DNA of 59,002 bases, taken from positions 1 to 59,002 of the forward strand of contig QPGA01000011.1 in assembly GCA_003332265.1 (NCBI GenBank). The letters run 5' to 3'. Positions within the stretch are counted from its first letter, which is position 1; each line of letters starts with the position of its first letter. This DNA is from Candidatus Accumulibacter meliphilus. Its GTDB lineage: Bacteria > Pseudomonadota > Gammaproteobacteria > Burkholderiales > Rhodocyclaceae. Below the pieces are notes generated by a model. The model saw only the letters and a program-made list of their open reading frames with translations, searched no databases and was not told the origin of the DNA. Below are positions 10,056 through 30,344 of the stretch, one piece after another. The translations under genes and the position numbers were made by a program.

Positions 10056-11570
10056 CTACGTGTGGACGAAAGCCTCTTCGCGTCGGCAGCGTCGCTCGAC
10101 CACGCGGCACAACAGCGCGGCGGCGGTCTCGATGGTCTGGGCGTCGATCGCGGCAAAGCCGAGGACCATCCCGGAGCGGCAGTTCGCAGCGTTGGCGTAG
10201 TACATGGACAGCGGTCGCACGATGATGCCGGCTTCGAGCATCTCGTTGGACAGGGCGACATCGTCGAGCAGCTGGGTGAAGAAGTAGGGAAGATGCAAGC
10301 CGGCCAGGCCTCCGGTGGTGCTCACCAGGTCGCCGAGCCGCGATTCGATGGCGCGGCGCAGGACGTTGCGGCGTTCCTGATAGATGCTGCGTACCCGTTT
10401 CAGGTGCGCGCCGAGGTGGCCTCCATCGATGAACTCGGCGAGTGCGGCCTGTTCGATCATGCGCCCTTCCCGGTAAAGCTCGGCGTTGCCGATGGCGAAG
10501 GCTTCGGCGAGTTGTTCGGGGACGACCAGATAGGCGAGGCGCAAACCGGGGAACATGGTCTTGCTGAAAGTGCCGAGATAGATCACGCGCTGCGAACGCG
10601 CTTGACCAAATAGCGAGCCGATGGTGTAGGGGTGATAGCGAATTTCGTTGTCGTAGTCATCCTCGATTACCCAGGCATTGTTCGTTTCGGCCAGTTCGAG
10701 AAGCTGCATGCGGCGACTGAGGGACATCACGACCCCGGTCGGGTACTGGCTCGAGGGGGAGACGAAGATCAGGCGCGGTGCTGCTGGCGCACCCGGCGGC
10801 GGTAGCGAGAGGCCTTCGTCGTCGACCGGGATCGGCGCGATCTGCAGGCCATTGGCGCGCAGGACGTTGCTCGCGCCCCAGTAGCCGGGGTCCTCCATCC
10901 AGGCATGATCGCCGTGGTCACAAAGCATGCGTGCGCAGAGATCGATGGCCTGGTGCGAGCCGTTGAGGATCAGGATTTGCCGCGGCGAACAGATCATCCG
11001 GCGTGATGCACGCAGGTAGTCGGCGAGCGCCGCTTTCAAGGGCCCGTAGCCGCCGTGGCTGTAGCGCGCGAGGTGGCGCTGTTCGAAGCGAATGTTTTTC
11101 GCCAGCAGGCGCCGCCAGGTGGCGAAGGGAAACAGACCGACGTCGGGCGCTCCCGGCAGGAAGGCGCCGCCCTGGATGCGGCTGCTGGTGGCGTGCTGCG
11201 CGATCTCGCGACCGCGCCGCGACAAGCTCGTCGCCAGACTGGCCGGCGAGGGGTAATTGGCCGGGTGCGTCCGGCGCGCGGAGCCGGGCAAGGCCGCGGG
11301 CAGCGCTTCCGATACCAGCGTGCCGGAGCCGCCACGACTCTGCAGATAGCCTTCGACGAGCATTTGCTCGTACACCCTGACCAGCGTGCTGCGGCTGACG
11401 CCGAGTTCGCTGGCCAGGCGTCGGGTTGGCGGAAGCGGGCTGCCAGCAGGCAATTCGCCGTCGAGAATCAAGCGCCGCAGGACAAGGTGCAGGGCGGCTT
11501 GCGTCCGCGATCCCCGCGGCTCGCTCTCGAATCGATCACGAATGAGCTCTATGTGCAGCGACTTGTCCAT
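10056..11570 (-). CDS. MocR/PdxR-family transcriptional regulator (GntR wHTH fused to aminotransferase domain)
   Basis: A 504-residue chimeric regulator. The N-terminal winged helix (residues about 20-85) shows PLPPTRRLASELGVSRSTLV then EGYLQSRGGSGTLV. The remainder is a class I aminotransferase-like domain with the PLP-Lys region YLGTFSKTMFPGLRLAYL. MocR proteins such as GabR and PdxR sense PLP adducts or amino acids and control divergently transcribed genes. Here the divergent gene is a GabT-like aminotransferase heading a long metabolic block, so this is the likely regulator of that block. The effector may be an amine or amino acid, by analogy with GabR. Confidence 0.93.
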   Translation of the reverse strand: MDKSLHIELIRDRFESEPRGSRTQAALHLVLRRLILDGELPAGSPLPPTRRLASELGVSRSTLVRVYEQMLVEGYLQSRGGSGTLVSEALPAALPGSARRTHPANYPSPASLATSLSRRGREIAQHATSSRIQGGAFLPGAPDVGLFPFATWRRLLAKNIRFEQRHLARYSHGGYGPLKAALADYLRASRRMICSPRQILILNGSHQAIDLCARMLCDHGDHAWMEDPGYWGASNVLRANGLQIAPIPVDDEGLSLPPPGAPAAPRLIFVSPSSQYPTGVVMSLSRRMQLLELAETNNAWVIEDDYDNEIRYHPYTIGSLFGQARSQRVIYLGTFSKTMFPGLRLAYLVVPEQLAEAFAIGNAELYREGRMIEQAALAEFIDGGHLGAHLKRVRSIYQERRNVLRRAIESRLGDLVSTTGGLAGLHLPYFFTQLLDDVALSNEMLEAGIIVRPLSMYYANAANCRSGMVLGFAAIDAQTIETAAALLCRVVERRCRREEAFVHT

Positions 11571-11964
11571 CGGTGAACGGCTGAATGGATTCGTTGATGA
11601 GGGCGGGCAGAATTGGTATCAGAACTTATCAGGCAATTGGTTCGATTGTGCACCGTTTTGGGGCGTACAGTCAATTCTTGACCTCCGCAATGCGCAGCGC
11701 ACGCGAGGAGGTGTTCGCGCCGGTGGCGCCGGATTTTTCCTTCAAGCCGCGGCTGAAGCGGTGGCCATAGTCACCGATACCGAGTATGGTCTGGCGTCTT
11801 CGGTGATTTCTGTCAAGGGACAACCCATCTTGGCGGTTTTTTCGTCCGCCTTCCGTCTTTTCGACAATCGCCCTGGTTCACTACCGAGAATTTGGCAAGA
11901 TGGTAGGTTGTTTGACAGAAGTCGCCTTAACTGCGCCTGCGGGCGAATTGAAGAGGAGAAGGAA
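11571..11964. promoter_or_regulatory. Divergent regulatory region between MocR gene and aminotransferase
   Basis: A 394-base spacer that must hold both divergent promoters. AATTGGT occurs twice in direct orientation at 11611-11617 and 11635-11641, 24 bases apart; MocR/GabR-type operators are often direct repeats spaced by about two helical turns, so this is a candidate operator. I could not place a convincing -35/-10 pair. The stretch is lower in GC than its surroundings from about 11600 to 11680. A good ribosome-binding site (GAGGAGAAGGAA) precedes the ATG at 11965. Confidence 0.35.
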
Positions 11965-13272
11965 ATGACGGTAGCTAAGGAAAAGACGAGCACCCAAACC
12001 AACGCCGAGCTGATGGCCCGCCGCCAGGCAGCCTTGCCGAGAGGTGTCGGCCAGGCGCACCCGCTGTTCGCGGAGCGTGCCCGGAACGCCGAGATCTGGG
12101 ACGTCGAGGGTCGTCGCTGGATCGATTTCTGCGCCGGTATCGCGGTGGTCAATACCGGGCACTGCCATCCGCGGCTGATCGCTGCGGCACGCGAGCAACT
12201 GGAGGCGTTCACGCACACCTGCTTCCAGGTGGTCGCCTACGAGTCCTATGTCGAGCTGTGCGAGCGGCTCAATGCCGCTGCCCCGGGCAGCACGCCGAAG
12301 AAATCCTTTCTGGTCAATACCGGCGCGGAAGCGGTTGAGAACGCGGTGAAGATCGCCCGCGCGGCCACCGGACGGAAGGGCGTCATCGCTTTCGGCGGTG
12401 GCTTCCATGGTCGGACCATGTTCGGTCTGGCGCTGACCGGCAAGGTGGCTCCGTACAAGGTGAAGTTCGGACCCTTCCCTGGCGGCATCTTCCACGTGCC
12501 GTTTCCGAATGCCCTGCACGGCGTCTCGGAAGATGACTCCATCGCCGCCATCGAACGTCTCTTCGCCTACAGCATCGAAGCCACCGATGTCGGCGCCATC
12601 GTTATCGAACCCGTACAAGGCGAGGGAGGCTATCTGCCTGCACCGCTCGGTTTCCTGGGTCGTTTGCGGACCTTGTGCGACAAGCACGGGATCCTGCTGG
12701 TTGCCGACGAAGTGCAGTCCGGCATCGCCCGTTGCGGCAAGCTGTTTGCCACAGAACACTACGACGTCGAGGCGGACATCATTACCCTGGCCAAGGGTCT
12801 TGGTGGTGGCCTGCCGGTTGCCGCCATTGTCGGCAAAGCCGAGATCATGGATGCGGCAGAAGTTGGCGGTCTCGGTTCCACCTACGCCGGCAGTCCGATT
12901 GCCGTCGCCGGCGCGCTGGCGGTGCTCGACATTGTCGAGGAAGAACAGCTCTGCAGTCGCTCGATGGCTCTCGGTGAGCGCATGCGTACTCGCTTCACGG
13001 CGATGCAGGCGAAGTATGCGAGCATCGCCGACGTGCGTGGCCTCGGGGCGATGACGGCGGTCGAGTTCTGTCGCCATGGGGACCCGCAGCAGCCGGCTGC
13101 AGATTTGGCCACGGCGCTCAAGAACGAAGCGGCGAAACGTGGTCTGCTGTTGCTGTTGTGCGGATCGCACGGTAATGTACTGCGCGTAATGATTTCGCTG
13201 ACCATCTCCGAGGCGCTTCTGGACGAGGGCCTGGATGTCATCGAGGCCTCACTGCAGGCGATTGGCGCCTGA
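11965..13272 (+). CDS. gabT: Class III aminotransferase, 4-aminobutyrate transaminase-like
   Basis: A PLP-dependent omega-amino acid transaminase, 435 residues. Key motifs: FLVNTGAEAVENAVKIAR (cofactor phosphate binding), FGGGFHGRT, VADEVQSGIARCGK (Asp contacting the pyridine N) and LAKGLGGGLPVAA, which carries the Schiff-base Lys. These match GABA/5-aminovalerate transaminases closely. The ATG at 11965 is chosen because it follows a strong Shine-Dalgarno and family similarity begins there; an open frame upstream to 11386 is non-homologous. The gene is divergent from the MocR gene. Given the decarboxylase and amidase downstream, it may deaminate a diamine- or amide-derived omega-amino acid rather than GABA itself. 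Confidence 0.9.
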   Translation: MTVAKEKTSTQTNAELMARRQAALPRGVGQAHPLFAERARNAEIWDVEGRRWIDFCAGIAVVNTGHCHPRLIAAAREQLEAFTHTCFQVVAYESYVELCERLNAAAPGSTPKKSFLVNTGAEAVENAVKIARAATGRKGVIAFGGGFHGRTMFGLALTGKVAPYKVKFGPFPGGIFHVPFPNALHGVSEDDSIAAIERLFAYSIEATDVGAIVIEPVQGEGGYLPAPLGFLGRLRTLCDKHGILLVADEVQSGIARCGKLFATEHYDVEADIITLAKGLGGGLPVAAIVGKAEIMDAAEVGGLGSTYAGSPIAVAGALAVLDIVEEEQLCSRSMALGERMRTRFTAMQAKYASIADVRGLGAMTAVEFCRHGDPQQPAADLATALKNEAAKRGLLLLLCGSHGNVLRVMISLTISEALLDEGLDVIEASLQAIGA

Positions 13273-13284
13273 GTTGGCGACGCT

Positions 13285-13332
13285 GCCGGAATGCCTATCC
13301 GACATTTCGGCATTCCGGCATTCCGGCTTTTT
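13285..13332 (+). terminator. Probable Rho-independent terminator after aminotransferase gene
   Basis: An 11-base stem, GCCGGAATGCC (13285-13295) pairing with GGCATTCCGGC (13317-13327), is followed at once by TTTTT. The right arm is partly duplicated (GGCATTCCGGC also at 13309-13319), offering two alternative hairpins. It suggests the aminotransferase may form its own transcript, separate from the amidase gene that begins 127 bases further on. Confidence 0.7.
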
Positions 13333-13458: not shown

Positions 13459-14457
13459 ATGATTCCTTTTTCAATTGCCGGTATCCAGATGAACATCTCG
13501 ATGGAGCGTGAGAACATCACCGCGATGGGACACAAGCTGGATGTCGTCATGGCCCGTTTTCCATGGGTGCAGATGGTCGTCTTCAGCGAGCTGGCTCCCT
13601 TCGGGCCGGCGCCTTATCATGCGCAGCCGACCGGCGGGCCGGCCGAGCAGATTTTTTGCCAGATGGCCGCCAAGCACGGCCTTTGGTTGCTGCCGGGGTC
13701 GATGTTCGAACGTATTGGTGACGACATCTACAACACCACGCCGGTGATCGATCCGAACGGAACGGTGGTCGCCCGTTACCGCAAGATGTTCCCTTTCCTG
13801 CCTTACGAAATGGGTATCAAGCCCGGAACCGACTTCTGCGTGTTTGACATCCCCAACATCGGGCGTTTCGGTGTCTCCATCTGCTACGACATGTGGTTTC
13901 CCGAAACGACCCGCACACTGGTCTCGATGGGGGCGGAATGCATTCTCCATCCGACCATGACCGACACCATTGACCGCGATGTCGAGCTACCGATCGCCCG
14001 CGCCAATGCAACCATCAATCAGTGCTATTTTTTCGATGTGAATGGTGTGGGCGACTGCGGCACCGGCCGTTCGATCATTGTTGGCCCTTCCGGCTACGTC
14101 ATCCATGAAGCCGGCGGTGGCGAAGAAATCATGCCGGTGGAAATCGATATATCGCGTGTTCGTCGAGAGCGCGAGGTGGGCATTCGTGGCCTCGGGCAAA
14201 CGCTGAAGAGCTTCCGTGACCGACCGATCGAGTTTCCGGTGTACCAGAAACATCTCGGCCATGAGGGGGAGTATCTGAATAGCCTGGGTCCGCTGATCAA
14301 GCCGACGCGCGGAACACGTTCAGAGCCTGTTGTCCTGCCGGCCGGCGTAGTTGCCGGGCCGGACGGATTGCACGTCAAGGTGGCCGATCTGAAGACGAAT
14401 ATGGACGTCGCTGCCGCGGCGGCGGAGAACTCGGCACCGTATTTTTCTGGTCCATGA
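13459..14457 (+). CDS. Carbon-nitrogen hydrolase (nitrilase superfamily amidase)
   Basis: A 332-residue nitrilase-superfamily enzyme, expected to hydrolyse an amide, carbamoyl or nitrile bond through a Cys-Glu-Lys triad. All three are visible: Glu in VVFSELAPFG, Lys in YRKMFPFLPYE, and Cys in SICYDMWFPETTR. The ATG at 13459 follows GCAGGAGAGCCC. The protein has a C-terminal extension beyond the core domain (after about residue 270) that I cannot assign. It lies between an aminotransferase and an ATP-grasp ligase, and the neighbourhood suggests an amide intermediate. Substrate unknown; aliphatic amidase or N-carbamoyl-amine amidase types are the nearest functional models. Confidence 0.88.
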   Translation: MIPFSIAGIQMNISMERENITAMGHKLDVVMARFPWVQMVVFSELAPFGPAPYHAQPTGGPAEQIFCQMAAKHGLWLLPGSMFERIGDDIYNTTPVIDPNGTVVARYRKMFPFLPYEMGIKPGTDFCVFDIPNIGRFGVSICYDMWFPETTRTLVSMGAECILHPTMTDTIDRDVELPIARANATINQCYFFDVNGVGDCGTGRSIIVGPSGYVIHEAGGGEEIMPVEIDISRVRREREVGIRGLGQTLKSFRDRPIEFPVYQKHLGHEGEYLNSLGPLIKPTRGTRSEPVVLPAGVVAGPDGLHVKVADLKTNMDVAAAAAENSAPYFSGP

Positions 14458-14470
14458 GTCGCTTGATTGA

Positions 14471-14718: not shown

Positions 14719-16188
14719 ATGACTCAAGCCCCGTTGTCAACAATCACCAGCATGTCGGACTTGCGCCTGTTTTTTCACCGCAACAAGCGTCCTATCTATT
14801 TCATCAGTGCCACCAACTTCAATCTGGCGGGCATGGACGAAAGGGTGCCGCACTTCAAGCACATCAACTACATCGATTGCTACGACGGTCGTCACCCGAA
14901 CGTCTTCGTTCCCAAGGAGCAGCCGCATCCGGAGTTCGAAGGCATCGAGGACATCAACAACTATCTGTTGCAGAACAAGGAAGTCATCGATTACATCAAG
15001 GGGCGCGGCGGCGATCCGGTCGCCGTGTTCCTGATGTTCGACGAAAAGACCGAGGAGTTGTGCAAGGACCTGGGCATCGAGCTGTGGTTTCCGCCGGCCT
15101 CCCTGCGCACGCGTTGCGACAACAAGATGGAAACGGTACGCATCGGCAACAAGGCCGGTGTGCCGTCGGTGCCGAACGTGCTGGCCAAGGTTGAAAGCTA
15201 CCAACAGCTGATCAAGCTGACCGAGGAAAACGGCCTGGGTAGCGACTTGGTGATTCAGTCGGCTTTTGGCGACTCGGGTCACACCACTTTCTTTATTTCG
15301 AACGAAGAAGAGTGGAAAAAGTACGCTGACGAGATCGTCAAGGATCCCGAGGTCAAGGTAATGAAGCGGATCAACTGCCGCGGCGGCACGCTCGAAGCCT
15401 GCGTCACTCGCTGTGGCACCGTGGTCGGACCGCTGTTGACCGAAATCGTCGGCGCCAAGGAGTTGACGCCGTACAAGGGGGGCTGGTGCGGCAACGAGGT
15501 CTTTCCGGGTGCCTTTCCCGAAAAGGCACGAATCACCGCGCGCGACTACGCCTATACCTTCGGCAACCAGTTGCTCGAGGAAGGTTATCGCGGCTACTTC
15601 GATCTCGATTTTCTGGTTGATCAGGACAGCGAAGAGGTTTATCTGGGTGAACTCAATCCGCGCGTCTGCGGTGCCAGCCCGATGACCAACCACGCCGCTT
15701 TCTCCTATGCCGACGCGCCGCTGTTCTTCTTCCACCTGCTCGAGTTCAGCGGTGCGGACTTCAAGCTCGACGTGGCGGCGATGAACGAACGCTGGAAGAA
15801 TCCAAAGTACATCGACAGCTGGAGCCAACTGGTGATGAAGTACACCGACAAGGAGGTGGATGTCGTCGAGCAGGCGCCACAATCGGGGATCTACCGCATG
15901 GACGACGCCGGCAAGGTCAGCTATCACCGCTTCGATTATCACCGCCTGGCGGTCGAAGGCGAGCACGAGGCATTCTGGCTGCGCATCACCGGCCCCGGCG
16001 ACTACCGCTATGAAGGAGCCGATCTGGGGATTCTGATCACCCGCGGCCGTTCGATGACCGAGGAGTTCAAGCTCAACCCGCGCGCGGAGAACTGGATCAG
16101 CGGCATTCAGAGCTTCTACAAGGGCCGGCCGCTGGATACCGGCATTCAGGAACCGGCGCCGTCGGCCGGCGCGTTCAAGATCCTCTGA
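14719..16188 (+). CDS. ATP-grasp domain ligase
   Basis: A 489-residue ATP-grasp enzyme, expected to activate a carboxylate as acyl-phosphate and join it to an amine or thiol. Visible elements: RTRCDNKMETVRIGNKAGVP at the start of the ATP-binding region, VIQSAFGDSGHTTFF as the glycine-rich nucleotide loop, and YFDLDFLVDQD...LGELNPRVCGAS with the Asp/Glu/Asn that ligate Mg-ATP. The ATG at 14719 is preferred because GAGGAGACAAGAA precedes it, the same leader seen before the decarboxylase gene. An alternative GTG at 14590 in the same frame would add a hydrophobic N-terminal helix (GLMIVGLAIGTLLGFGIFAL), making it membrane-anchored. The C45 hydrolase gene follows after 16 bases. Confidence 0.85.
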   Translation: MTQAPLSTITSMSDLRLFFHRNKRPIYFISATNFNLAGMDERVPHFKHINYIDCYDGRHPNVFVPKEQPHPEFEGIEDINNYLLQNKEVIDYIKGRGGDPVAVFLMFDEKTEELCKDLGIELWFPPASLRTRCDNKMETVRIGNKAGVPSVPNVLAKVESYQQLIKLTEENGLGSDLVIQSAFGDSGHTTFFISNEEEWKKYADEIVKDPEVKVMKRINCRGGTLEACVTRCGTVVGPLLTEIVGAKELTPYKGGWCGNEVFPGAFPEKARITARDYAYTFGNQLLEEGYRGYFDLDFLVDQDSEEVYLGELNPRVCGASPMTNHAAFSYADAPLFFFHLLEFSGADFKLDVAAMNERWKNPKYIDSWSQLVMKYTDKEVDVVEQAPQSGIYRMDDAGKVSYHRFDYHRLAVEGEHEAFWLRITGPGDYRYEGADLGILITRGRSMTEEFKLNPRAENWISGIQSFYKGRPLDTGIQEPAPSAGAFKIL

Positions 16189-16204
16189 GCAGCGGCCGAA
16201 CTGG

Positions 16205-17209
16205 ATGGCGCTCATTCAGACCCAGTCGCTGCTTTTCCGGGCCATCGAGGAAGCACGACCGGGCGCCATCTGGCAAGCGCTGTTTGCGGAGTTCTGGCCG
16301 TCGTATCGCCGCTGGTACCTGCAAGGCGGCAATGCGGCGCGCCCCTACTACCTGCCTTGCGTTCGGGCGCTGAAAAAGCACATGCCGGAGCTGCTGCCGA
16401 CCTACGAAAGGCTGGCCGAGCTCGCTGGTGGCGGCGATCTGGAGGCCCGCTTCCTGTCGCTGTTCTGTCCGCCGCCGTATGTCACCGCGTGTTCGCAGGT
16501 CGCCTGGCCCGGTGCGCAGCCGCTACTGCTGCGCAATTACGACTATCCGGCGCAGTTGTGCGAAGGCGTGATCCTGAAGACCGCCTGGAACGGGCGCCAG
16601 GTGATCGGCGTCAGCGACTGCGTATGGGGTTTGCTCGACGGCATCAACGACGACGGCCTGGCGGTATCCCTGTCGTTTGGCGGCCGCCTGGACGTCGGCG
16701 AAGGATTCGGCGTGCCGCTGGTCCTGCGCTACGTGCTGGAAACCTGCAGCCGAACGGCTGCGGCGGCTGCCGCTTTGGCGCGGGTGCCGGTGCACATGAG
16801 CTACAACGTGACCGTGCTTGATCGGCACGGCGACTTTGCGACGGTCTATATGGCGCCGGGCAAGAACGGCGATATCCAGCGCATTGCGGCGGCGACCAAC
16901 CACCAGCAGAAGGTCGAGTGGCAGCAACATGCGCGTGCCACGTCGACGGTCGAGCGCCTGCGTTTGCTGCGGCTGATGCTGGACGACAGCGCGATCACCA
17001 GCGAGGCGCTGATCGCCGCTTTCCTGCAAGCGCCGATCTACTCGAACGCGTTTGCCCGTGGTCTTGGCACGCTCTACTCGGCCGCCTACTGGCCGGACGA
17101 AGGGCGTGCCGATTTTCTCTGGCCAGGCCATAGCTGGTCACAGTCGTTTGCCGATTTCACGGTTGGCGCGCGGCTCATCGAGTTTGGCAGTTCCCCCACT
17201 ACCGCCTAA
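16205..17209 (+). CDS. C45 family autoproteolytic acyltransferase/hydrolase
   Basis: A 334-residue N-terminal-nucleophile hydrolase of the acyl-CoA:6-APA acyltransferase (peptidase C45) type. These are made as a proenzyme that cleaves itself before a Cys, which becomes the nucleophile. The likely site is before Cys96 in YVTACSQVAW, followed by the family-typical LLRNYDYP and GLLDGINDDGLAVSLSFGG. Members hydrolyse or transfer acyl groups on amide bonds (penicillin acyltransferase; beta-alanyl-amine hydrolases of insects). Placed directly after an ATP-grasp ligase, it could break or trim the amide that the ligase makes; this is inference. Confidence 0.85.
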   Translation: MALIQTQSLLFRAIEEARPGAIWQALFAEFWPSYRRWYLQGGNAARPYYLPCVRALKKHMPELLPTYERLAELAGGGDLEARFLSLFCPPPYVTACSQVAWPGAQPLLLRNYDYPAQLCEGVILKTAWNGRQVIGVSDCVWGLLDGINDDGLAVSLSFGGRLDVGEGFGVPLVLRYVLETCSRTAAAAAALARVPVHMSYNVTVLDRHGDFATVYMAPGKNGDIQRIAAATNHQQKVEWQQHARATSTVERLRLLRLMLDDSAITSEALIAAFLQAPIYSNAFARGLGTLYSAAYWPDEGRADFLWPGHSWSQSFADFTVGARLIEFGSSPTTA

Positions 17210-23071: not shown

Positions 23072-23337
23072 GCATCCCGCGAGTCACCGATGCTCTGCTC
23101 GAAGTGGATGGCCGTGTGGCGCTTCTGACCCTCAATCGCGACGACGTCCGCAACGCCCGGACCGGACGCCACGTCGGCGTCGAGGAGGCCACGGCGCTGC
23201 GCCTTGCCAAGCGATTGATGAAAATGGCGCAACGCATGGAGTTAAAAGACTTTCTCCATCTTTGCGCTGCTTTTCAGGGGATGTGCCATAACGAAGTGGA
23301 GCATCCGGATGCGGTGCACCGGATGCTCAAGGAATGA
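23068..23337 (+). pseudogene. Internally deleted enoyl-CoA hydratase remnant (N- and C-termini fused in frame)
   Basis: An 89-residue ORF joining the first ~30 residues of a crotonase (TDALLEVDGRVALLTLNRDD, then VRNA) directly to the last ~57 (GVEEATALRLAKRLMKMAQR, then LHLCAAFQGMCHNEVEHPDAVHRML). The central ~170 residues that form the active site and oxyanion hole are missing, with the joint near 23155-23190. The frame is intact and the ATG overlaps the synthetase stop (ATGA), as a functional operon gene would. It cannot be catalytically active as a crotonase. It was a second, different crotonase from the gene at 20092. Confidence 0.75.
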
Positions 23338-23640
23338 CTGCGGCGCTGCGTCGGTAGCAGATATTTGCCTGGAATGGGTCTAGGCGCGAGCGGGTTTTGT
23401 GTGTAGAGTCGTTGCGCGTTGGTTTTCGTCGCTTGCCCGAAGCGCTATGTTTCGGTAGCTTGATGTCAGCCAGCGTGCCGACAGGATTGGGCATGACTGA
23501 GGAATGACTGCTCAGAAAGTGGCGCTGAGTTGATGGGGCGGCGGCGAAGTTTTGCTCACTTTTCCATCATCAGACTGCCACCCTGCCTGGTCGCGGGATG
23601 CCTCGTTTCCATCGCTTGAACATATTAAAAGGAGACAACT
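23338..23640. other. Intergenic spacer before TRAP importer genes
   Basis: A spacer of 303 bases without a credible gene. The ten-base string GGAATGACTG occurs at both ends of its first 180 bases (around 23332 and 23502), each followed by a short related sequence ending in GGCGCTG, hinting at a small duplication linked to the deletion just upstream. The last part carries AAAAGGAGACAACT before the TTG start of the TAXI gene. A promoter for the transporter is expected here but I could not define one. Confidence 0.4.
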
Positions 23641-24606
23641 TTGAACAAACTTAGCACTCTTGCCGCAGCCCTTGCCATTTCCGCCAGCGTCGCCAGCCCA
23701 ACAGCGTTCGCGCAACAGAAATTCGTCACCATCGGTACGGGTGGCGTGACCGGCGTGTACTACGCGGCGGGCGGCGCGATCTGCCGCCTGATGAACAAGG
23801 AAAGGGCGACGCACGGCATTCGCTGCTCGGTCGAGAGTACCGGCGGCTCGGTCTATAACGTCAATACCATCAAGGCCGGTGAGCTTGACTTTGGCGTTGC
23901 TCAGTCCGACGTGGCGTACAACGCGCTGAAGGGAGAAAACCAGTTCAAGGGCGCAGCTTTCGGCGATTTGCGTTCGGTCTTCTCGATTCATCCCGAGCCG
24001 CTGGTCGTGCTCGCCCGCGAGGACGCCAAGGTCGTTTCGCTGCTCGACTTCAAGGGCAAGCGCTTCAACATCGGCAATCCGGGCTCCGGACAGCGCGCGA
24101 CCATGGATATCCTGCTGCCGGCGCTGGGCATGAAAACCAGCGACTTCTCGCTGGTGTCCGAGATGAAGGCCGATGAACACGGTGCCGCGCTGTGCGATAA
24201 CAAGATCGACGGCTTTGCCTACGTCGTCGGCAACCCGTCGGCGAATATCCAGGACCCGACCACCACCTGTCACGCGCAACTGGTCAATATCATCGGGCCG
24301 GCAGTTGACAAGCTGGTCAAGACCTATCCCTACTACGCGGCGGTGAGTATCCCGGGTGGAATGTACGCGCACAACCCGAACCCGACGAACACCTTCGGCG
24401 TGGTTGCGGCCTTTGTCTCGTCGTCGAAAGTTTCCAACGACGTGGTCTATGCGATGGTGAAAGCGGTCTTCGACAACCTCGACGACTTCAAGAAGCTGCA
24501 TCCGGCTTTCGCGCATCTAGATCCGAAGGAAATGATCAAGAACGGCCTGTCCGCACCCCTGCACGACGGCGCTGTGAAGTACTACAAGGAGAAGGGCTGG
24601 ATGTAA
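23641..24606 (+). CDS. TAXI family TRAP transporter solute-binding protein
   Basis: A periplasmic solute-binding subunit, 321 residues. A signal peptide ([20 protein letters not shown], then TAFAQQ) precedes the mature start [20 protein letters not shown], the TAXI-family signature; [17 protein letters not shown] and [16 protein letters not shown] are also typical. The start codon is TTG, chosen because AAAAGGAGA lies just upstream and the signal peptide begins there. It delivers a carboxylate-type ligand to the fused TRAP permease encoded next. A strong hairpin between the two genes could set different expression levels. Confidence 0.93.
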
Positions 24607-24697: not shown

Positions 24698-24726
24698 TTA
24701 CGTTGAAGTCTGCGGAGATTGTGCAC

Positions 24727-27330
24727 ATGGCTGAAAAAGAAACGGAGGCCGTCCTGACGGACGAGCAACTCAAACAACTGGTTGCCGAAGCAGACACCGG
24801 TGGTCGCAAGCCGGGCGGCGCGGTCGCCAAACTGATGATGTTTACGGCCCTGGCCTGGTCGCTGTTCCAACTCTGGATCGCTTCGCCGCTGCCGTATTCG
24901 CTGGGCATCCTGGTGCTCAATGACACCGAGTCGCGTTCGGTCCACCTGGCTTTTGCCATGTTTCTCGCTTATCTCGCCTACCCGGCATTCAAGAGTTCGC
25001 CGCGGGCCTATGTGCCGCTTCTGGACTGGGTGCTGGCCCTGGTCGGCGTTTTCTGCGCCTCGTATCTCTTCGTCTTCTACTCCGAGTTGTCCACGCGGCC
25101 CGGTCAGCCGACGACGCTCGACCTGGTTGCCTCGGTCGCCGGCATCGTGCTGCTGCTCGAAGCGGCGCGGCGCGCGCTTGGCCTGCCGATGGTGATTCTG
25201 GCGGCGATTTTCATCGGCTACATTTTTCTCGGTCCCCACATGCCGGACCTTATCGCCCACAAAGGGGCGTCTCTCGGCAAGGGCATGTCGCACCTGTGGT
25301 TGAGCACCGAAGGCGTCTTTGGCGTTGCGCTGGGTGTTTCATCGGGCTTTATCTTCCTCTTCGTGTTGTTCGGCGCCCTTCTGGAAACCGCCGGTGCCGG
25401 CAACTATTTCATCAAGTCGGCCATCTCGCTGCTCGGTCACCTGCGTGGTGGTCCGGCCAAGGCGGCTGTCGTTGCTTCGGCATGCACCGGGCTGATTTCC
25501 GGGTCGTCGATCGCCAACGTCGTGACCACCGGAACCTTCACCATTCCGCTCATGAAGCGGGTCGGCTATCGTCCTGACAAGGCCGCCGCCGTCGAGGTCG
25601 CGGCTTCGGTCGACGGTCAGATCATGCCGCCGGTGATGGGCGCTGCAGCTTTCCTGATGGTCGAGTACGTCGGCATTCCCTACACGCAGGTGCTCAAGCA
25701 CGCCATCCTGCCGGCGCTGATCTCCTACATCGCGCTGTTCTACATCGTGCATCTGGAAGCGATGAAGGCCGACATCCGTGGCATTCCGCACGTGCACGAG
25801 GCCAGCTTGAGCCAGCGCATGATTTCCTTCCTGATGACCGTTTCCGGAATGGTCATCCTTGCCGGCATCGTTTACTACGGCTTTGGCTGGCTCAAGGACG
25901 TCTTCGGCGACGCCTCGATCTATATCGTCGGCGTGGTGATGATGGCGGCCTACATCGGCCTGTTGAAGTTCGGTACCCGTTATCCTGAATTGCTCATGGA
26001 CGACCCGGATGCGCCTATCGAGCACTTGCCGGATGCCGGCCCGACGCTGAAATCGGGTCTGCACTTCCTGCTGCCGGTGGTGGTGCTGATCTGGAACCTG
26101 ATGGTCGAGGAACTTTCGCCGGCCTTGTCCGCCTTCTGGGCGACGGTGTTCCTGATGTTCATCCTGGTCACGCAAAGGCCGATCATTGCGCACTTCCGCA
26201 AGCAGGGCGATCCCGGCGGCGCGATTCGTCAGGGCTTTCAGGATCTGCTCGACGGCCTGGTTACCGGCGCGCGCAACATGATCGGCATCGGTATCGCCAC
26301 GGCCGCCGCCGGCATCATCGTCGGTACCGTGACGCTGACCGGCATTGGTCTGGTGATGAGCGAGCTGGTCGAACTGATCTCGGGTGGCAACCTGATGATC
26401 ATGCTCTGTCTGGTCGCGGTAATCTGCCTGATCCTCGGCATGGGTCTGCCAACGACCGCCAACTACATCGTCGTATCGACGCTGATGGCGCCGGTGGTCG
26501 TCGAACTCGGTGCGCAGAGTGGTTTGCTGGTGCCTCTGATCGCCGTGCATCTGTTCGTTTTCTATTTCGGGCTGATGGCCGACGTCACGCCGCCGGTAGG
26601 CCTGGCGTCGTATGCCGCCGCCGGGGTGGCACGCTGCGATCCGATCAAGGTCGGCGTGACCGCTTTCGGCTACAGCATTCGAACGGCGATCCTGCCCTTC
26701 ATGTTCATCTTCAACACGCAGTTGCTGTTGATCGGTATCGACAATGCCTGGCACCTGTTCATGACCGTGTCCACCGCGATTCTTGCCAATCTGCTCTTCG
26801 CTGCGGCGACGCAGGGCTGGTTCATGGCCCGCAATCGCTGGTGGGAGGCGCTGCTCTTGCTGGTGGTGACTTTTACCCTCTTCCGTCCGGGTTTCTGGAT
26901 GGACATCGTCCATCCGCCTTACGACAAGCTACCGCCGACCAGGATCATGGAGGTCGTCGAACAAGCCCCCGCCGATGACCGCCTGCGCGTCTGGATCGAG
27001 GGCGAGGACATCAATGGCAAGAAGATCTCCAAGGGCGTCCTGTTGCCGCTCGGTGCCCAGGCACCGGCGCTGCAGCGTCTCAACAGCGCCGGCCTGAGCC
27101 TGATGGCCTCGGGTGATCAGGTCGATATCCTGGGGGTCAAGTTTGGCAGCCGCGCGGCGAAGCTCGGTATCGAGCAGGGATTCACCATCACCGCGCTGGA
27201 AGTGGAGACGGCACGGCCGGCCAAGGAATGGTTCTACATTCCCGCTTTGCTGCTGATGGGGCTGGTCATCGTCATCCAGCGGCGGCGTGCTGCGGTGATT
27301 GCCGCTGACGAGCTGAAGCCGGCCAGCTAG
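24727..27330 (+). CDS. Fused TRAP transporter permease (4TM-12TM), with C-terminal DUF3394-type domain
   Basis: An 867-residue inner-membrane protein of the fused DctQ-DctM type used with TAXI binding proteins. The N-terminal small-subunit helices (from about residue 25) are followed by a long DctM-type array with GLISGSSIANVVTTGTFTIP, QIMPPVMGAAAFLMVEYVG and the FGLMADVTPPVGLASYAAAG signature. The last ~180 residues include a soluble segment (LRVWIEGEDINGKKISKGVL, LDVQ-like PDZ-type fold) ending in one more helix and a basic tail. The ATG at 24727 is preferred over the upstream TTG at 24703. Na+- or H+-driven uptake of an organic acid for the flanking catabolic genes is the likely role. Confidence 0.93.
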   Translation: MAEKETEAVLTDEQLKQLVAEADTGGRKPGGAVAKLMMFTALAWSLFQLWIASPLPYSLGILVLNDTESRSVHLAFAMFLAYLAYPAFKSSPRAYVPLLDWVLALVGVFCASYLFVFYSELSTRPGQPTTLDLVASVAGIVLLLEAARRALGLPMVILAAIFIGYIFLGPHMPDLIAHKGASLGKGMSHLWLSTEGVFGVALGVSSGFIFLFVLFGALLETAGAGNYFIKSAISLLGHLRGGPAKAAVVASACTGLISGSSIANVVTTGTFTIPLMKRVGYRPDKAAAVEVAASVDGQIMPPVMGAAAFLMVEYVGIPYTQVLKHAILPALISYIALFYIVHLEAMKADIRGIPHVHEASLSQRMISFLMTVSGMVILAGIVYYGFGWLKDVFGDASIYIVGVVMMAAYIGLLKFGTRYPELLMDDPDAPIEHLPDAGPTLKSGLHFLLPVVVLIWNLMVEELSPALSAFWATVFLMFILVTQRPIIAHFRKQGDPGGAIRQGFQDLLDGLVTGARNMIGIGIATAAAGIIVGTVTLTGIGLVMSELVELISGGNLMIMLCLVAVICLILGMGLPTTANYIVVSTLMAPVVVELGAQSGLLVPLIAVHLFVFYFGLMADVTPPVGLASYAAAGVARCDPIKVGVTAFGYSIRTAILPFMFIFNTQLLLIGIDNAWHLFMTVSTAILANLLFAAATQGWFMARNRWWEALLLLVVTFTLFRPGFWMDIVHPPYDKLPPTRIMEVVEQAPADDRLRVWIEGEDINGKKISKGVLLPLGAQAPALQRLNSAGLSLMASGDQVDILGVKFGSRAAKLGIEQGFTITALEVETARPAKEWFYIPALLLMGLVIVIQRRRAAVIAADELKPAS

Positions 27331-27409: not shown

Positions 27410-28375
27410 ATGAACAAGCAATTTGCATCGGTCGCCGATCTTGAGGAGAAGAAAACGACGTTTGTCCAGCTCTCCGAGCACTGCTGGGGTTACACCGCCG
27501 AGGGCGATCCGAACACCGGCGTGATCATTGCCGACGACAGCGTCCTGATCGTCGATACGCTGGCGACGCCGGTGATGGCGGCTCGCCTGATCGCCGAGAT
27601 TCGCCGCCTGACCGACAAGCCGATCAAGTACGTCGTGCTCTCGCACTATCACGCGGTGCGTGTGCTCGGCGCTTCGGCGTATCGCGCCGAAGGCTTGCAG
27701 GAGATCATCGCCAGCCAGGGCACTTACGAGATGATCGTCGAGCGTGGCGCGCAGGATATGCAGTCGGAGTACGAGCGTTTTCCACGCCTGTTCCAGGATT
27801 TTGATTCGATCCCCGGGCTGACCTGGCCAACGCTGGTTTTCCAGGATACGATAAGGCTGAACATGGGCGGGCTGGAGGTGCAGGTGATGCATCCCGGGGC
27901 CGGGCATACGCGCGGTGATACCGTCGTCTGGGTGCCTGCCGAGAAAGTGCTCTTCTCGGGCGACCTCGTCGAGTGCGATGCGGCCTGCTACACCGGCGAC
28001 GCGCAACTCGCGGAATGGCCGACGACGCTGGCGACGATACGCGGCTTCGGCGCCGAAAAACTGCTCCCTGGGCGAGGCCCGGCGCTGACAACGCCCGCGG
28101 AAGTGGCCCGGGGCCTCGACTATACGACCGATTTCGTCACCACCCTCTTCTCTTGCGCCCAGCAGGCGGTCGCCGCCGAGATGAACCTCAAGCAGGCCAT
28201 GGCACACATCCGGCAGGCGATGGACCCGAAGTTCGCACAGGTGTTCATCTACGAGCATTGTTTGCCGTTCGACGTGGTGCGAGCCATTGACGAGGCCAAG
28301 GGTATTCGTCACCCGCGGATCTGGACGGCGGCGCGTGACCAGGAGATGTGGCACGGTCTGCAGCCTGCGGATTGA
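27410..28375 (+). CDS. MBL-fold metallo-hydrolase-like protein with incomplete metal site
   Basis: A 321-residue metallo-beta-lactamase-fold protein. The fold is clear (TGVIIADDSVLIVDTLATPV; GAGHTRGDTVVW; VLFSGDLVE). The canonical HxHxDH motif, however, reads H79-Y-H81-A-V83-R84, so the Asp and third His are lost. His166 and Asp185 are kept, and the usual C-terminal Gly-His is Gly-Arg222. At most one metal could be bound in the normal way. The ATG at 27410 follows GGAG. It lies between the TRAP permease and a flavin monooxygenase, so a role on an ester, thioester or lactone intermediate is possible, but chemistry cannot be assumed. Confidence 0.82.
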   Translation: MNKQFASVADLEEKKTTFVQLSEHCWGYTAEGDPNTGVIIADDSVLIVDTLATPVMAARLIAEIRRLTDKPIKYVVLSHYHAVRVLGASAYRAEGLQEIIASQGTYEMIVERGAQDMQSEYERFPRLFQDFDSIPGLTWPTLVFQDTIRLNMGGLEVQVMHPGAGHTRGDTVVWVPAEKVLFSGDLVECDAACYTGDAQLAEWPTTLATIRGFGAEKLLPGRGPALTTPAEVARGLDYTTDFVTTLFSCAQQAVAAEMNLKQAMAHIRQAMDPKFAQVFIYEHCLPFDVVRAIDEAKGIRHPRIWTAARDQEMWHGLQPAD

Positions 28376-28420
28376 TGTCTTGAGGGGCTGGCGACTGAAT
28401 CAGCAGAGGGAGAGTGCGTC

Positions 28421-30103
28421 GTGCTGAGTACCTACGTTTATCCCCATTTCGACTACCTGACGCCGGCGGAGCTGCATGGCGGGGCACGGCGTCGGCACCC
28501 GGTGATCGTCGTCGGTGCCGGACCGGTTGGCTTGGCGACAGCGATCGATCTGGCGCAGCAGGGCATGCCGGTACTGTTGCTCGACGACGACGCCAGCGTT
28601 TCGGTGGGCTCGCGCGGTGTCTGCTACGCAAAACGCACGCTCGAGGTCCTCGACCGCCTCGGCGTTGGTGATCGCTGCTTCGCCAAGGGGGTCAGCTGGA
28701 ACGTTGGTCGCACGTTCTTCCGTGAGCACGAGGTCTACAATTTTCAGCTGCTCTCGCAGCCGGACCACAAACGTCCGGGGATGATCAACCTGCAGCAGTA
28801 TTACCTCGAGGAGTTCCTCGTCCGGCGTGCGCAGGAGCTTCCCGGCATCGACCTGCGCTGGCAGAACCGGGTCGTCGGCGTGCAGCAGGAGGGGCAGGAC
28901 GGTGAGGGCGGCGTGACACTGCAGGTCGAAACGCCGGACGGCGTGTACGCGCTCGCCTGCGACTGGCTGATCGTCGCCGACGGTGCGCGCAGCAGCATTC
29001 GCCGGATGCTGAAGCTGGAAGTCGAGGGCAAGGTGTTCATGGACCGCTTCCTGATCGCCGACGTCGTCATGAAGGCCGATTTTCCCGCCGAGCGCTGGTT
29101 CTGGTTCGACCCGCCTTTCCATCCCGGGCAGTCGGTGCTGCTGCACCGCCAGGCCGACAACGTCTGGCGGATCGACTTTCAGCTCGGTTGGCAGGCCGAT
29201 CCCGACGAGGAGCAGAAGCCCGAGAAGGTCATGCCGAGAATAAAGGCCATGCTCGGTGAGGATCGGGAGTTCGAACTCGAGTGGGTCAGCGTGTACACCT
29301 TCCAGTGTCGGCGCATGAGCAGCTTTCGCCAGCAGCGGGTGCTGTTCGTCGGCGATGCAGCGCATCAGGTGAGTCCTTTTGGCGCCCGCGGTGCCAATTC
29401 GGGAATACAGGATGCCGACAACCTGGTCTGGAAGCTCAAGCTGGTTATTGACGGCCAAGCTCCGGACAGCCTGCTCGACAGCTACGGCGAGGAACGCGAG
29501 TTCGCTGCCGATGAGAACCTGCTCAACTCGACGCGATCAAGCGACTTCATTTCGCCCAAGAGCAAAACGTCGCTGAGCTTTCGCAACGCGGTGTTGACGC
29601 TGGCGCGCAAGTACCCTTTTGCGCGGGCGCTGGTCAACTCGGGGCGACTTTCGGTGCCGGCATTTTTGTGTGGGTCGTCGCTTAACACTCACGACGGCGA
29701 AGCGTTCAACGGCCAGATGTGGCCCGGAGCAGCGATGGATGACGCGCCGATCCGTGAGCAAGGGCGTGACGGCTGGCTGCTCGACGCCGTCGGTGAGCAC
29801 TTCATGCTGCTCTGCAGTGTCGATGATCCGGCCGCTGTCAATGCGTCGACCATGGCGGTCTTCAGCGCGCTGGCCGCTGCTCCGGTTCCGGTCGAAGCCG
29901 TGCTTCTCGCCAGCGGCGGTGGTGCCGCAGGCGCGGGCCTGCGGGTGTTCGAGGACTGCCGGGGTCGCTACGCCGAACGTTATGATGCCCGGCCGGGGAC
30001 GGTGTACCTCCTGCGCCCGGACCAGCACATCGCCGCGCGTTGGCGCCGTCTTGACGCGGCCGCCGTCGCGGCGGCGCTGACGCGCGCCATTGGCAAGCAC
30101 TAA
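28421..30103 (+). CDS. FAD-dependent monooxygenase (group A, PheA/TfdB/MhpA type)
   Basis: A 560-residue NAD(P)H-dependent flavin hydroxylase. The FAD-binding fold HPVIVVGAGPVGLATAIDLA lies near residues 26-45; the second FAD signature FVGDAAHQVSPFGARGANSG and the following DADNLVWKLKLVI are intact, and the C-terminal thioredoxin-like domain is present (GRDGWLLDAVGEHFML to LLRPDQHIAARW). Relatives hydroxylate phenolic rings. GTG at 28421 is the start, with AGAGGGAGAG upstream. The DUF2783 gene begins 13 bases after its stop, a pairing often seen with this monooxygenase type. An aromatic substrate is therefore likely for this part of the block. Confidence 0.9.
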   Translation: MLSTYVYPHFDYLTPAELHGGARRRHPVIVVGAGPVGLATAIDLAQQGMPVLLLDDDASVSVGSRGVCYAKRTLEVLDRLGVGDRCFAKGVSWNVGRTFFREHEVYNFQLLSQPDHKRPGMINLQQYYLEEFLVRRAQELPGIDLRWQNRVVGVQQEGQDGEGGVTLQVETPDGVYALACDWLIVADGARSSIRRMLKLEVEGKVFMDRFLIADVVMKADFPAERWFWFDPPFHPGQSVLLHRQADNVWRIDFQLGWQADPDEEQKPEKVMPRIKAMLGEDREFELEWVSVYTFQCRRMSSFRQQRVLFVGDAAHQVSPFGARGANSGIQDADNLVWKLKLVIDGQAPDSLLDSYGEEREFAADENLLNSTRSSDFISPKSKTSLSFRNAVLTLARKYPFARALVNSGRLSVPAFLCGSSLNTHDGEAFNGQMWPGAAMDDAPIREQGRDGWLLDAVGEHFMLLCSVDDPAAVNASTMAVFSALAAAPVPVEAVLLASGGGAAGAGLRVFEDCRGRYAERYDARPGTVYLLRPDQHIAARWRRLDAAAVAAALTRAIGKH

Positions 30104-30116
30104 GAGGGAAGGTCAG

Positions 30117-30344
30117 ATGTCGACACTGATTACCGAGGCCAACTTCGGCGCGCCCGGCGAGCATTATTTGCGTTCGTTTACTCCGGGCGACGATTTCTAC
30201 GAAGCGCTGCTCGACGCGCACCGCGATCTTTCCGACGCGCAGAGCGAACTGCTTAACGCACGCTTGATTCTCCTTCTCGCCAACCACATTGGCGACCTTG
30301 GCGTACTACGCGAAGCCCTGCACATTGCCCGCGAAGAGGTTTAG
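30117..30344 (+). CDS. DUF2783 domain protein
   Basis: A 75-residue protein with the recognisable DUF2783 core: DDFYEALLDAHRDLSDAQSE, then LLNARLILLLANHIGDLGVL. It is mostly helical and acidic. The family is found beside FAD-dependent monooxygenases, as here, and may be a small accessory subunit or stabiliser; no activity is established to my knowledge. The ATG at 30117 is preferred over an in-frame upstream start at 30090 that would overlap the monooxygenase, because AGAGGGAAGG precedes it. Confidence 0.85.
   Translation: MSTLITEANFGAPGEHYLRSFTPGDDFYEALLDAHRDLSDAQSELLNARLILLLANHIGDLGVLREALHIAREEV

What the first reader, a model, noticed from the sequence alone, without database searches (positions are those of the whole stretch)
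10056..30344. Candidate uncharacterised pathway: MocR-controlled amide/amine block joined to CoA, TRAP and monooxygenase genes
One strand carries, in order, an omega-aminotransferase, nitrilase amidase, ATP-grasp ligase, C45 self-cleaving acyltransferase/hydrolase, oversized Orn/Lys/Arg decarboxylase, crotonase, ADP-forming acyl-CoA synthetase, TAXI-TRAP importer, MBL protein, flavin hydroxylase and DUF2783, with a divergent MocR regulator. Seen: the gene order and intact catalytic motifs. Known: ATP-grasp enzymes form amide bonds, and C45 and nitrilase enzymes break or transfer them; the decarboxylase and transaminase handle amines. Inferred: an imported, probably aromatic acid is hydroxylated or CoA-activated, and an amine conjugate is made or dismantled. 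I know of no named pathway with this set.
Basis: partly seen in the sequence, partly recalled or inferred. Interest (0 to 1): 0.8.

Follow-up and report, generated by a model that had tools for sequence, protein, structure and literature searches.

The report
GABA-linked amide ligase and hydrolase genes
The finding holds a real, widely shared but uncharacterised block of bacterial genes that seems to make and break amide bonds around the amino acid GABA; the CoA and ring-oxidising genes beside it mostly belong to separate, more ordinary gene sets.

Summary
The genes are there as described, in Candidatus Accumulibacter, but form three separable modules, not one pathway. (1) Core: divergent MocR, GABA transaminase, nitrilase-fold amidase, ATP-grasp enzyme, C45 Ntn hydrolase and a 921-aa Orn/Lys/Arg-type decarboxylase (OKR). 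Of 398 evenly drawn Pseudomonadota genomes 11 have the ATP-grasp gene and all 11 have this OKR type; in 16 even-sample loci C45 lies within 5.1 kb of it in 16 and OKR within 4.1 kb in 15. (2) Crotonase, acyl-CoA synthetase, TAXI-TRAP: TAXI-TRAP recurs beside cores elsewhere, the CoA genes only in Accumulibacter. (3) MBL, flavin hydroxylase, DUF2783: a separate trio, often beside homogentisate genes. "Biotin carboxylase" looks wrong for the ATP-grasp protein. "Orn/Lys/Arg" is doubtful: the residue proposed to hold lysine is Asn, and the sister clade sits beside AspT antiporters in 6 of 6 sampled genomes (three genera). Best reading, substrates unproven: glutamate (or, by swapped-in genes, arginine) gives GABA, which is ligated, released and drained to succinate; a succinate-semialdehyde dehydrogenase relic lies between MocR and transaminase. 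The closest solved relative, M. tuberculosis Rv2531c, has no known activity.

The parts
10056..11570 (-). MocR/PdxR-type GntR-aminotransferase regulator, divergent
   Evidence: Pfam GntR + Aminotran_1_2; PdxR model over cut-off 373 vs 320, rhizopine MocR 457 below 650, GabR 256 below 600; MocR homologue in 15 of 87 core loci, 0 of 16 even-sample loci
11679..11800 (+). piece of a decayed succinate-semialdehyde-type aldehyde dehydrogenase gene; a full-length gene without stops lies at this place in strain HK-STAS-PROT-102 (L047)
   Evidence: 81% DNA identity over 123 nt to L047 and 83% to C57, residues 388-428 of 495 in two frames; L047 gene: no stop, Aldedh profile 1-461 of 461
11802..11926 (.). 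MITE-like 125-bp element with 31-nt imperfect inverted ends (74% complementary), right after the relic
   Evidence: 7 partial matches elsewhere in the own genome
11965..13272 (+). GabT, class-III 4-aminobutyrate transaminase
   Evidence: TIGR00700 549 bits over cut-off 506.65; three other GABA-transaminase models score higher but under their own cut-offs
13459..14457 (+). nitrilase-superfamily amidase (core gene)
   Evidence: PF00795; Glu44-Lys109-Cys142; in 73 of 87 core loci, 10 of 16 even-sample loci
14719..16188 (+). ATP-grasp enzyme of the PRK06524 family, annotated 'biotin carboxylase' (core gene)
   Evidence: NF005096 769 bits over cut-off 684; model pLDDT 86.9, biotin carboxylase/PurK-like fold, TM about 0.6
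16205..17209 (+). C45 autoproteolytic Ntn hydrolase/acyltransferase (core gene)
   Evidence: NF040521 173.6 over 85; Cys96 invariant in 36 sequences; model pLDDT 95.2, best PDB match isopenicillin N acyltransferase 2x1c, TM 0.67
17248..20013 (+). Rv2531c-type Orn/Lys/Arg-family PLP decarboxylase, 921 aa (core gene)
   Evidence: PF01276; full-length match to PDB 9n0n/9n0o (844 bits); Lys572, N732-K-T-S-R736-N
20092..20874 (+). crotonase (module 2; neighbour, not part of the core)
20876..23071 (+). ADP-forming acyl-CoA synthetase (module 2; neighbour)
23072..23640 (+). second crotonase with an internal deletion against L049, where a 229-codon stretch without stops lies
23641..24606 (+). TAXI solute-binding protein (recurrent partner of the core in other genomes)
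   Evidence: TIGR02122 328 over 84; in 26 of 87 core loci, 2 of 16
24703..27330 (+). fused TRAP permease
   Evidence: TIGR02123 692 over 321; in 24 of 87, 3 of 16
27410..28375 (+). MBL-fold protein (module 3; neighbour)
   Evidence: with hydroxylase and DUF2783
28421..30103 (+). FAD_binding_3 hydroxylase (module 3; neighbour)
30117..30344 (+). DUF2783 protein (module 3; neighbour)
   Evidence: PF10932 98 bits over 25; 54-67% identical to the annotated DUF2783 proteins of L166-L168

Best explanation
The core (Nit, ATP-grasp, C45, OKR, in part of the loci with GabT and/or a succinate-semialdehyde-type dehydrogenase, and with a MocR or XRE-cupin regulator) is a GABA-centred conjugation/deconjugation module. 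Shown: it is a conserved unit, and in some loci its supply gene (OKR) is replaced by a set of arginine-keto genes whose textbook end product is GABA. Inferred: the OKR-fold enzyme decarboxylates an acidic amino acid, most likely glutamate to GABA. The ATP-grasp enzyme spends ATP to join GABA to a second metabolite by an amide bond. The self-cleaving C45 hydrolase and the nitrilase-fold amidase cleave or transfer that bond. GabT and the dehydrogenase drain GABA to succinate, and TAXI-TRAP, ABC or permease systems import the amino acid. The partner of GABA, and whether the net direction is synthesis or breakdown, are unknown. The crotonase/acyl-CoA synthetase pair and the MBL-hydroxylase-DUF2783 trio are neighbours, not parts.
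For: Unit: ATP-grasp in 11 of 398 phylum genomes, Rv2531c-type OKR in 17 of 398, all 11 shared, the own genome among them (overlap P 1.4e-17, not corrected for kinship). In 16 other loci from the class and phylum draws C45 is within 601 bp of the ATP-grasp gene in 14 and within 5.1 kb in 16; OKR within 240 bp in 11, within 1.3 kb in 14 and within 4.1 kb in 15 (the 16th contig starts inside the ATP-grasp gene); Nit in 10. GABA: GabT in 29 of 87 and ALDH in 19 of 87 loci; TIGR00700 names the window GabT, TIGR01780 the own C57 ALDH an SSADH, both over cut-off; a relic of that dehydrogenase lies in the window and a full gene in L047. Swap: a D-amino-acid dehydrogenase and an ornithine-racemase-like racemase in 6 loci, a 2-ketoarginine-type TPP decarboxylase in 5 of these 6, each in 0 of the 72 OKR loci (families checked on L077 and partly L039; the racemase scores 399.5, under its model's 480). 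Acidic substrate: the position of LDC Glu526 and ODC E532 is Asn732; N732-K-T-S-R736-N is identical in 22 of 22 core sequences of A7 (Glu526 as proposed substrate site, passages of PMC5607190). The single-origin sister clade keeps the motif in 9 of 9 and has AspT-family antiporters beside it in 6 of 6 even-sample genomes and 3 plasmids; in L246, L247 and L251 the AspT next to OKR is diverged, 372-379 bits against 535-542 for the other (cut-off 547). Glutamate-dehydrogenase-family genes within 15 kb of cores in L126, L128 and L043 and an FMN glutamate-synthase-family gene in 11 of 87 loci.
Against: No substrate was tested. The own genome already has a canonical glutamate decarboxylase (637 bits, cut-off 380), as does one other of 16 core genomes. 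OKR-fold glutamate decarboxylases are unknown to me. The six AspT genomes are of three genera only (four share g317). In L129 both AspTs flanking OKR are over the Asp/Ala cut-off (704 and 562), and AspD lies beside in L129, L134 and L248, so AspT may serve AspD alone. Nit is missing in 6 and GabT in 12 of 16 even-sample loci. Nine genomes whose core locus lacks OKR were searched whole: one (G661, keto type) has a core-type OKR elsewhere, two (G658, G659) only a weak partial match of about 227 bits, six none; of the eight without it, six (L051, L054, L056, L058, L062, L070) also show no keto genes in the locus, though L054 and L056 have almost no upstream flank. A rhizobial OKR reads NKTTRN. 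Arginine as OKR substrate would also explain the swap.
Confidence: 0.4

Rival explanations
1. Basic-amino-acid version: OKR is an arginine (or ornithine) decarboxylase, and the ATP-grasp/C45 pair is a protect/deprotect couple, as in the Puu pathway. The distal amine of putrescine, agmatine or ornithine is acylated, the carbon chain is oxidised to N-acyl-GABA, and C45 (with Nit) releases GABA.
For: OKR family name and Pfam. Keto-type loci use an agmatinase-family enzyme and an AruI-type decarboxylase (over cut-off) and an ornithine-racemase-like racemase (under cut-off), so arginine or ornithine enters there. Protection would explain why ATP-grasp and C45 are in both types: free 5-amino-2-oxopentanoate and 4-aminobutanal cyclise (recalled). 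S. meliloti IlvB1, an AruI homologue, has sevenfold higher activity with 5-amino-oxopentanoate (passages of PMC7268258). XRE-cupin regulators, the PuuR build (recalled), in 18 of 87 loci (domains). E. coli arginine decarboxylase also lacks the Glu at this position (Thr571).
Against: The distal-amine Glu of LDC and ODC is Asn, with a conserved Arg four residues on. An agmatinase-family gene is in only 1 of 72 OKR loci. AspT-type antiporters flank the sister clade; E. coli AdiC and CadB found no match there at 60 bits. The DAO query matched 0 of 72 OKR loci; no other amine oxidase was recognised, but only part of the neighbours was annotated.
Confidence: 0.28
2. Biosynthesis of an unknown small conjugate (osmolyte, signal or storage compound): the decarboxylase and ATP-grasp ligase make it, C45 is an acyltransferase, and Nit, GabT and SSADH recycle.
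For: ATP-consuming ligase plus a relative of isopenicillin N acyltransferase. On one R. leguminosarum plasmid the triad lies next to nifHDKEN (L043), and on another near an AHL synthase and Nif11/radical-SAM peptide genes (L128).
Against: Importers recur beside the core: TAXI-TRAP, Dpp-type ABC, amino-acid permease, SBP_bac_3. Among neighbour clusters found in six or more loci no exporter or tailoring enzyme was recognised, apart from what by the L042 annotation is a lipid-transport (MlaD) set in 7 loci.
Confidence: 0.16
3. One reading: an imported aromatic acid is hydroxylated or CoA-activated and its amine conjugate made or dismantled by all genes 10056-30344.
For: Gene adjacency here and in one other Accumulibacter genome (L047/L265).
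Against: 0 of 11 other class genomes with the hydroxylase have the core. The hydroxylase trio sits with homogentisate genes elsewhere. 0 of 87 and 0 of 16 core loci carry MBL, hydroxylase or DUF2783 within the flanks held (in L046, L047 and L049 the flank ends before that place, and L047's genome has them further on). ACC003 lacks the hydroxylase.
Confidence: 0.05
4. The ATP-grasp protein is a genuine biotin-type or biotin-free carboxylase, as its annotation says.
For: NF005096 name 'biotin carboxylase'; closest folds are biotin carboxylase and PurK.
Against: In the profile alignment with E. coli AccC, the E-x-N-x-R stretch is kept but the following Gln-Val-Glu296 is Cys-Gly-Ala. No biotin carrier or carboxyltransferase was recognised among the annotated neighbours. 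The hhalign probability is only 74%.
Confidence: 0.08

Closest known systems
Puu (gamma-glutamyl-putrescine) pathway of E. coli
   Same: ligase and hydrolase that make and break an amide around a GABA-yielding compound, a GABA transaminase, an SSADH-type dehydrogenase, and in 18 of 87 loci an XRE-cupin regulator
   Different: ligase is ATP-grasp, not glutamine-synthetase type; hydrolase is a C45 Ntn enzyme, not a class-I amidotransferase fold; a decarboxylase supplies the substrate (Puu features recalled)
M. tuberculosis Rv2531c 'probable amino acid decarboxylase' (PDB 9n0n, 9n0o, 9n0p)
   Same: full-length homologue of the window OKR including the long N-terminus and the insert before the PLP lysine (844 bits)
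   Different: activity unknown (PMC12910592 passages); its printed alignment has Ile where the core has Arg736; a link to an ATP-grasp/C45 pair was not tested
AspT/AspD aspartate-decarboxylation acid-stress system
   Same: the OKR sister clade lies beside AspT-family antiporters
   Different: the core OKR is linked to ATP-grasp/C45 instead; AspT in 0 of 87 core loci
Arginine racemase/dehydrogenase route (DauA, AruI, guanidinobutyrase) to GABA
   Same: such genes take the place of OKR beside ATP-grasp/C45 in six loci
   Different: the textbook route needs no ATP-grasp, C45 or nitrilase (recalled)
Homogentisate-linked MBL / FAD hydroxylase / DUF2783 trio
   Same: the same trio at 27410-30344
   Different: no homogentisate dioxygenase match in the own genome; not linked to the core outside Accumulibacter

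Membership tests
Orn/Lys/Arg decarboxylase family (PF01276) | family profile match and PLP-binding lysine | tested here: met
   255 bits over 27; Lys572 invariant
Orn/Lys decarboxylase by specificity | acidic residue for the distal amine (LDC Glu526, ODC E532) | tested here: not met
   Asn732, identical in 22 of 22 core sequences of A7 (numbering; role proposed in PMC5607190)
Biotin carboxylase | Gln-Val-Glu296 after the E-x-N-x-R motif (role recalled) | tested here: not met
   Cys-Gly-Ala in the hhalign alignment to AccC
Biotin carboxylase | biotin carrier partner encoded nearby | tested here: inconclusive
   none recognised, but not every neighbour was annotated
PRK06524 / NF005096 | score over curated cut-off | tested here: met
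   769 vs 684 bits
C45 autoproteolytic Ntn hydrolases (NF040521) | score over cut-off and conserved nucleophile Cys | tested here: met
   173.6 vs 85; Cys96 invariant in 36
C45 autoproteolytic Ntn hydrolases (NF040521) | self-cleavage | not testable with these tools
   needs purified protein
Nitrilase superfamily | Glu-Lys-Cys triad | tested here: met
   Glu44, Lys109, Cys142; PF00795
GABA transaminase (TIGR00700) | score over equivalog cut-off | tested here: met
   549 vs 506.65
GabR (NF052285) | score over cut-off | tested here: not met
   256 vs 600; PdxR model is over its cut-off, 373 vs 320
Puu pathway | PuuA-type ligase and PuuD-type hydrolase in the cluster | tested here: not met
   the ligase candidate is ATP-grasp and the hydrolases are C45 and nitrilase-fold
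Puu pathway | gamma-glutamyl intermediates | not testable with these tools
   needs metabolite analysis
One pathway with the TRAP/CoA/hydroxylase genes | both halves travel together in most genomes | tested here: not met
   TAXI-TRAP is a partial exception

The most novel reading that the evidence does not exclude
An undescribed GABA-conjugation module spread through Pseudomonadota, in which an OKR-fold enzyme has turned from basic amino acids to glutamate (with a sister clade that forms a new glutamate/GABA acid-stress pair with a diverged AspT antiporter), an ATP-grasp protein misnamed biotin carboxylase makes a GABA amide, and a C45 Ntn hydrolase releases it. It would give the first functional lead for the orphan Rv2531c decarboxylase family.
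Probability: 0.31. Interest if true: 0.8.

Novelty: new variant of a known kind. Interest (0 to 1): 0.6.

Why it matters
Yet the gene is filed as biotin carboxylase and its partner as Orn/Lys/Arg decarboxylase. The swap between OKR and arginine-keto genes, and the AspT-linked sister clade, turn an orphan enzyme family with a solved structure but no known activity into a directly testable question: is it a glutamate decarboxylase?

Tried and rejected
Rejected: (a) one joined aromatic pathway (see rivals). (b) Biotin carboxylase activity. (c) A lysine 5-aminovaleramide (DavB/DavA) reading of Nit + GabT: considered; no monooxygenase of that kind was recognised among the neighbours that were annotated. 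(d) A rhizopine link because of MocR: the rhizopine MocR model is below its cut-off. (e) Homogentisate breakdown in this strain: no hmgA match in the own genome, which is 91% complete. (f) Absence of canonical glutamate decarboxylase as support: it is present in the own genome, so this does not help. (g) A structured RNA in the window: none at gathering thresholds. (h) An own-genome PF07722 search as a sign of PuuD: 5 matches over a permissive cut-off, and all 14 control genomes ring, so uninformative. (i) A sequence search of C45 against PDB gave one chance-level hit, E 0.42. (j) Paper searches for the combination: searches found no paper, one unrelated listing, and none of the 31 papers listed (20 of 31) holds PRK06524. 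These cover only the held open-licence library, so they do not prove that nothing is in print.

Corrections and limits: an earlier count said Nit 11 of 16; searches show 10 of 16. For these I lowered the best reading from 0.42 to 0.40, the novel case from 0.33 to 0.31, and raised the first rival from 0.27 to 0.28. The core OKRs are not one clade (2 label changes; the sister clade sits among or beside them), and long branches limit that tree. The 80 loci are the best by identity, hence biased to near kin. Many loci are from metagenome-assembled genomes, where absence is weak. For strain SBR_S (L049) no hydroxylase was found, but the held contigs did not let me look downstream of its TRAP gene.

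Full report
What is there. The window belongs to Candidatus Accumulibacter: the ATP-grasp protein matches A. phosphatis SBR_S at 100%. The + strand stretch falls into three modules: core 11965-20013, CoA plus TAXI-TRAP 20092-27330, and MBL-hydroxylase-DUF2783 27410-30344, with a divergent MocR at 10056-11570. The MocR scores over the PdxR cut-off and under those of GabR and rhizopine MocR.

The core is a real unit. In an even draw of 398 Pseudomonadota genomes (the own one included) the ATP-grasp family occurs in 11 and the OKR type in 17; all 11 are shared. The hypergeometric probability is 1.4e-17, not corrected for kinship. The six OKR-only genomes score 1132-1148 bits against the core profile; most core members score above 1400, the two most divergent (G310, G337) 876 and 700. 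In 16 other loci taken from the class and phylum draws, C45 is in the locus in 16 (within 601 bp of the ATP-grasp gene in 14), OKR in 15 (within 240 bp in 11; in L165 the contig starts inside the ATP-grasp gene), Nit in 10, GabT in 4, TRAP permease in 3, TAXI in 2, crotonase in 1 at 34%, MocR, synthetase, MBL, hydroxylase and DUF2783 in 0, ALDH in 5. In 87 loci (80 best from genome contigs, six plasmid loci, one own) the numbers are ATP-grasp 87, C45 86, Nit 73, OKR 72, GabT 29, TAXI 26, TRAP 24, MocR 15. The own genome has a second core on contig C57 with a GabT 84% identical, an SSADH-type dehydrogenase, and OKR, ATP-grasp and C45 at 57, 70 and 52%. The two OKRs fall in different branches, so OKR was not recently duplicated here.

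Neighbours. Acyl-CoA synthetase and crotonase of the window type are beside the core only in the three Accumulibacter loci L046, L047 and L049 (hits at 29-31% in L071, L083 and L088 are taken as other family members). TAXI, TRAP, crotonase and synthetase occur together without the core in G126 (L231). The TRAP permease is in 19 of 210 class genomes, the own included; 16 of the other 18 have no core ATP-grasp gene, and in the remaining two (G154, G155) the match is on another contig or 65 kb away, though a further TRAP piece lies by the core in L160. The hydroxylase is in 12 of 210, the own included, and none of the other 11 has the core. Of the seven hydroxylase loci fetched out of these 11 genomes, six carry MBL and DUF2783 with it and four carry maiA, hmgA or fahA; three plasmid loci show the same. 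Among nine genomes with near-kin cores, four have the hydroxylase, and only in L047's genome was it seen next to the core.

Relics. Between MocR and GabT the window keeps a 120-bp piece of an aldehyde dehydrogenase (residues 388-428 of 495) followed by a MITE-like element. L047 has a full gene there without stops, and NCBIfam names the related C57 gene SSADH. So the ancestral cluster probably carried a complete GABA-to-succinate drain. The 569-bp gap before TAXI is a second crotonase with an internal deletion.

What the enzymes look like. ATP-grasp: NF005096 over cut-off. The model (pLDDT 86.9) is nearest to biotin carboxylases and PurK at TM about 0.6, but the Gln-Val-Glu296 that follows the E-x-N-x-R motif in AccC is Cys-Gly-Ala, so the name is probably wrong. 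Weak profile hits to a propargylglycine-glutamate ligase and an ATP-grasp peptide ligase (E 0.21 and 0.68, below many carboxylase hits) are only hints. C45: the model (pLDDT 95.2) is closest to isopenicillin N acyltransferase and then to NAAA. OKR: full-length kin of Rv2531c; a 2026 review says that the cryo-EM study of Rv2531c did not clarify its activity (passages of PMC12910592). A study of this fold says that a considerable number of homologues of B. subtilis SpeA are unlikely to be arginine, ornithine or lysine decarboxylases (passages of PMC8503589).

Which substrate. LDC Glu526, proposed to bind lysine (passages of PMC5607190), and ODC E532 align with Asn732; E. coli arginine decarboxylase has Thr571 there. 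NKTSRN is identical in 22 of 22 core sequences of A7; a looser pattern search found it or a near form in 70 of 79 core pieces, some of them partial, and one rhizobial OKR reads NKTTRN. The sister clade (support 100/100) keeps the motif in 9 of 9, and in 6 of 6 sampled genomes (three genera) and 3 plasmids has AspT-type antiporters alongside. In L246, L247 and L251 the AspT next to OKR scores 372-379 bits on the Asp/Ala antiporter model and the other 535-542 (cut-off 547); in L129 both are over it. This points to an acidic substrate close to Asp, hence glutamate to GABA as first guess, but AspT serving AspD alone is not excluded. Independently, six loci without OKR carry a D-amino-acid dehydrogenase and an ornithine-racemase-like racemase; five of them also carry a 2-ketoarginine-type decarboxylase and an agmatinase-family enzyme. 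The first three of these genes are in 0 of 72 OKR loci, the last in 1. Both supplies can end in GABA. Against: a canonical glutamate decarboxylase exists in the own genome, some genomes have the ATP-grasp/C45 pair with neither supply seen, and arginine could be the shared substrate instead.

Mechanism proposed. Amino acid in (TRAP, ABC or permease), GABA made, an amide made with ATP, the amide cut or transferred by C45 and Nit, excess GABA drained. Steps shown: gene linkage, family membership, catalytic residues. Steps inferred: every substrate and the direction. Context of interest: on a Rhizobium leguminosarum plasmid the triad is next to nifHDKEN. The FixJ-activated genes SMa0680/SMa0682 of S. 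meliloti (passage of PMC13327599) may or may not be this type; that was not tested.

Verdict. A conserved, unnamed metabolic module with a good lead to its chemistry; ordinary neighbours. Interest 0.6; new variant of a known kind.

Noticed in passing
L045 (own genome contig C57), 7273-16736: Second core in the same genome: SSADH, GabT (84% to the window's), and OKR-ATP-grasp-C45 on the other strand, with an SBP_bac_3 amino-acid-binding protein beside C45.
   Followed up: partly
window 11802-11926: MITE-like 125-bp element with 31-nt imperfect inverted ends in the MocR-GabT gap, right after an aldehyde dehydrogenase relic; 7 partial matches on contigs C3, C29, C44 and C58 of the own genome.
   Followed up: partly
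window 23072-23640: Second crotonase gene with an internal deletion against L049 18393-19079.
   Followed up: yes
L246-L251, L129, L130, L134: Rv2531c-type decarboxylase beside AspT antiporters (with AspD in L129, L134 and L248): looks like an undescribed acid-stress decarboxylase-antiporter pair.
   Followed up: partly
L043 10255-17480: Core triad next to nifHDKEN on an R. leguminosarum symbiosis plasmid.
   Followed up: no
L044, L128: Nif11 leader, radical-SAM epimerase and C-methyltransferase genes near the core triad on clover-rhizobium plasmids.
   Followed up: no
L127 12001-12886: ATP-grasp gene present only in pieces in S. medicae plasmids (partial hits H25-H32).
   Followed up: no
L083: Record titled Oceanobacillus sp. 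HTM 045 holds a core whose ATP-grasp gene is 64% identical to the window's; possibly a mislabelled or contaminated assembly.
   Followed up: no
L049 12530-15293: OKR gene split into two overlapping frames in A. phosphatis SBR_S, an assembly error or a real frameshift.
   Followed up: no
window 30444-37669: Wzy_C-like protein (24.5 bits, below Pfam's 31.7), bacterial sugar transferase, GAF histidine kinase and sigma-54 response regulator: perhaps the start of an exopolysaccharide gene set.
   Followed up: no
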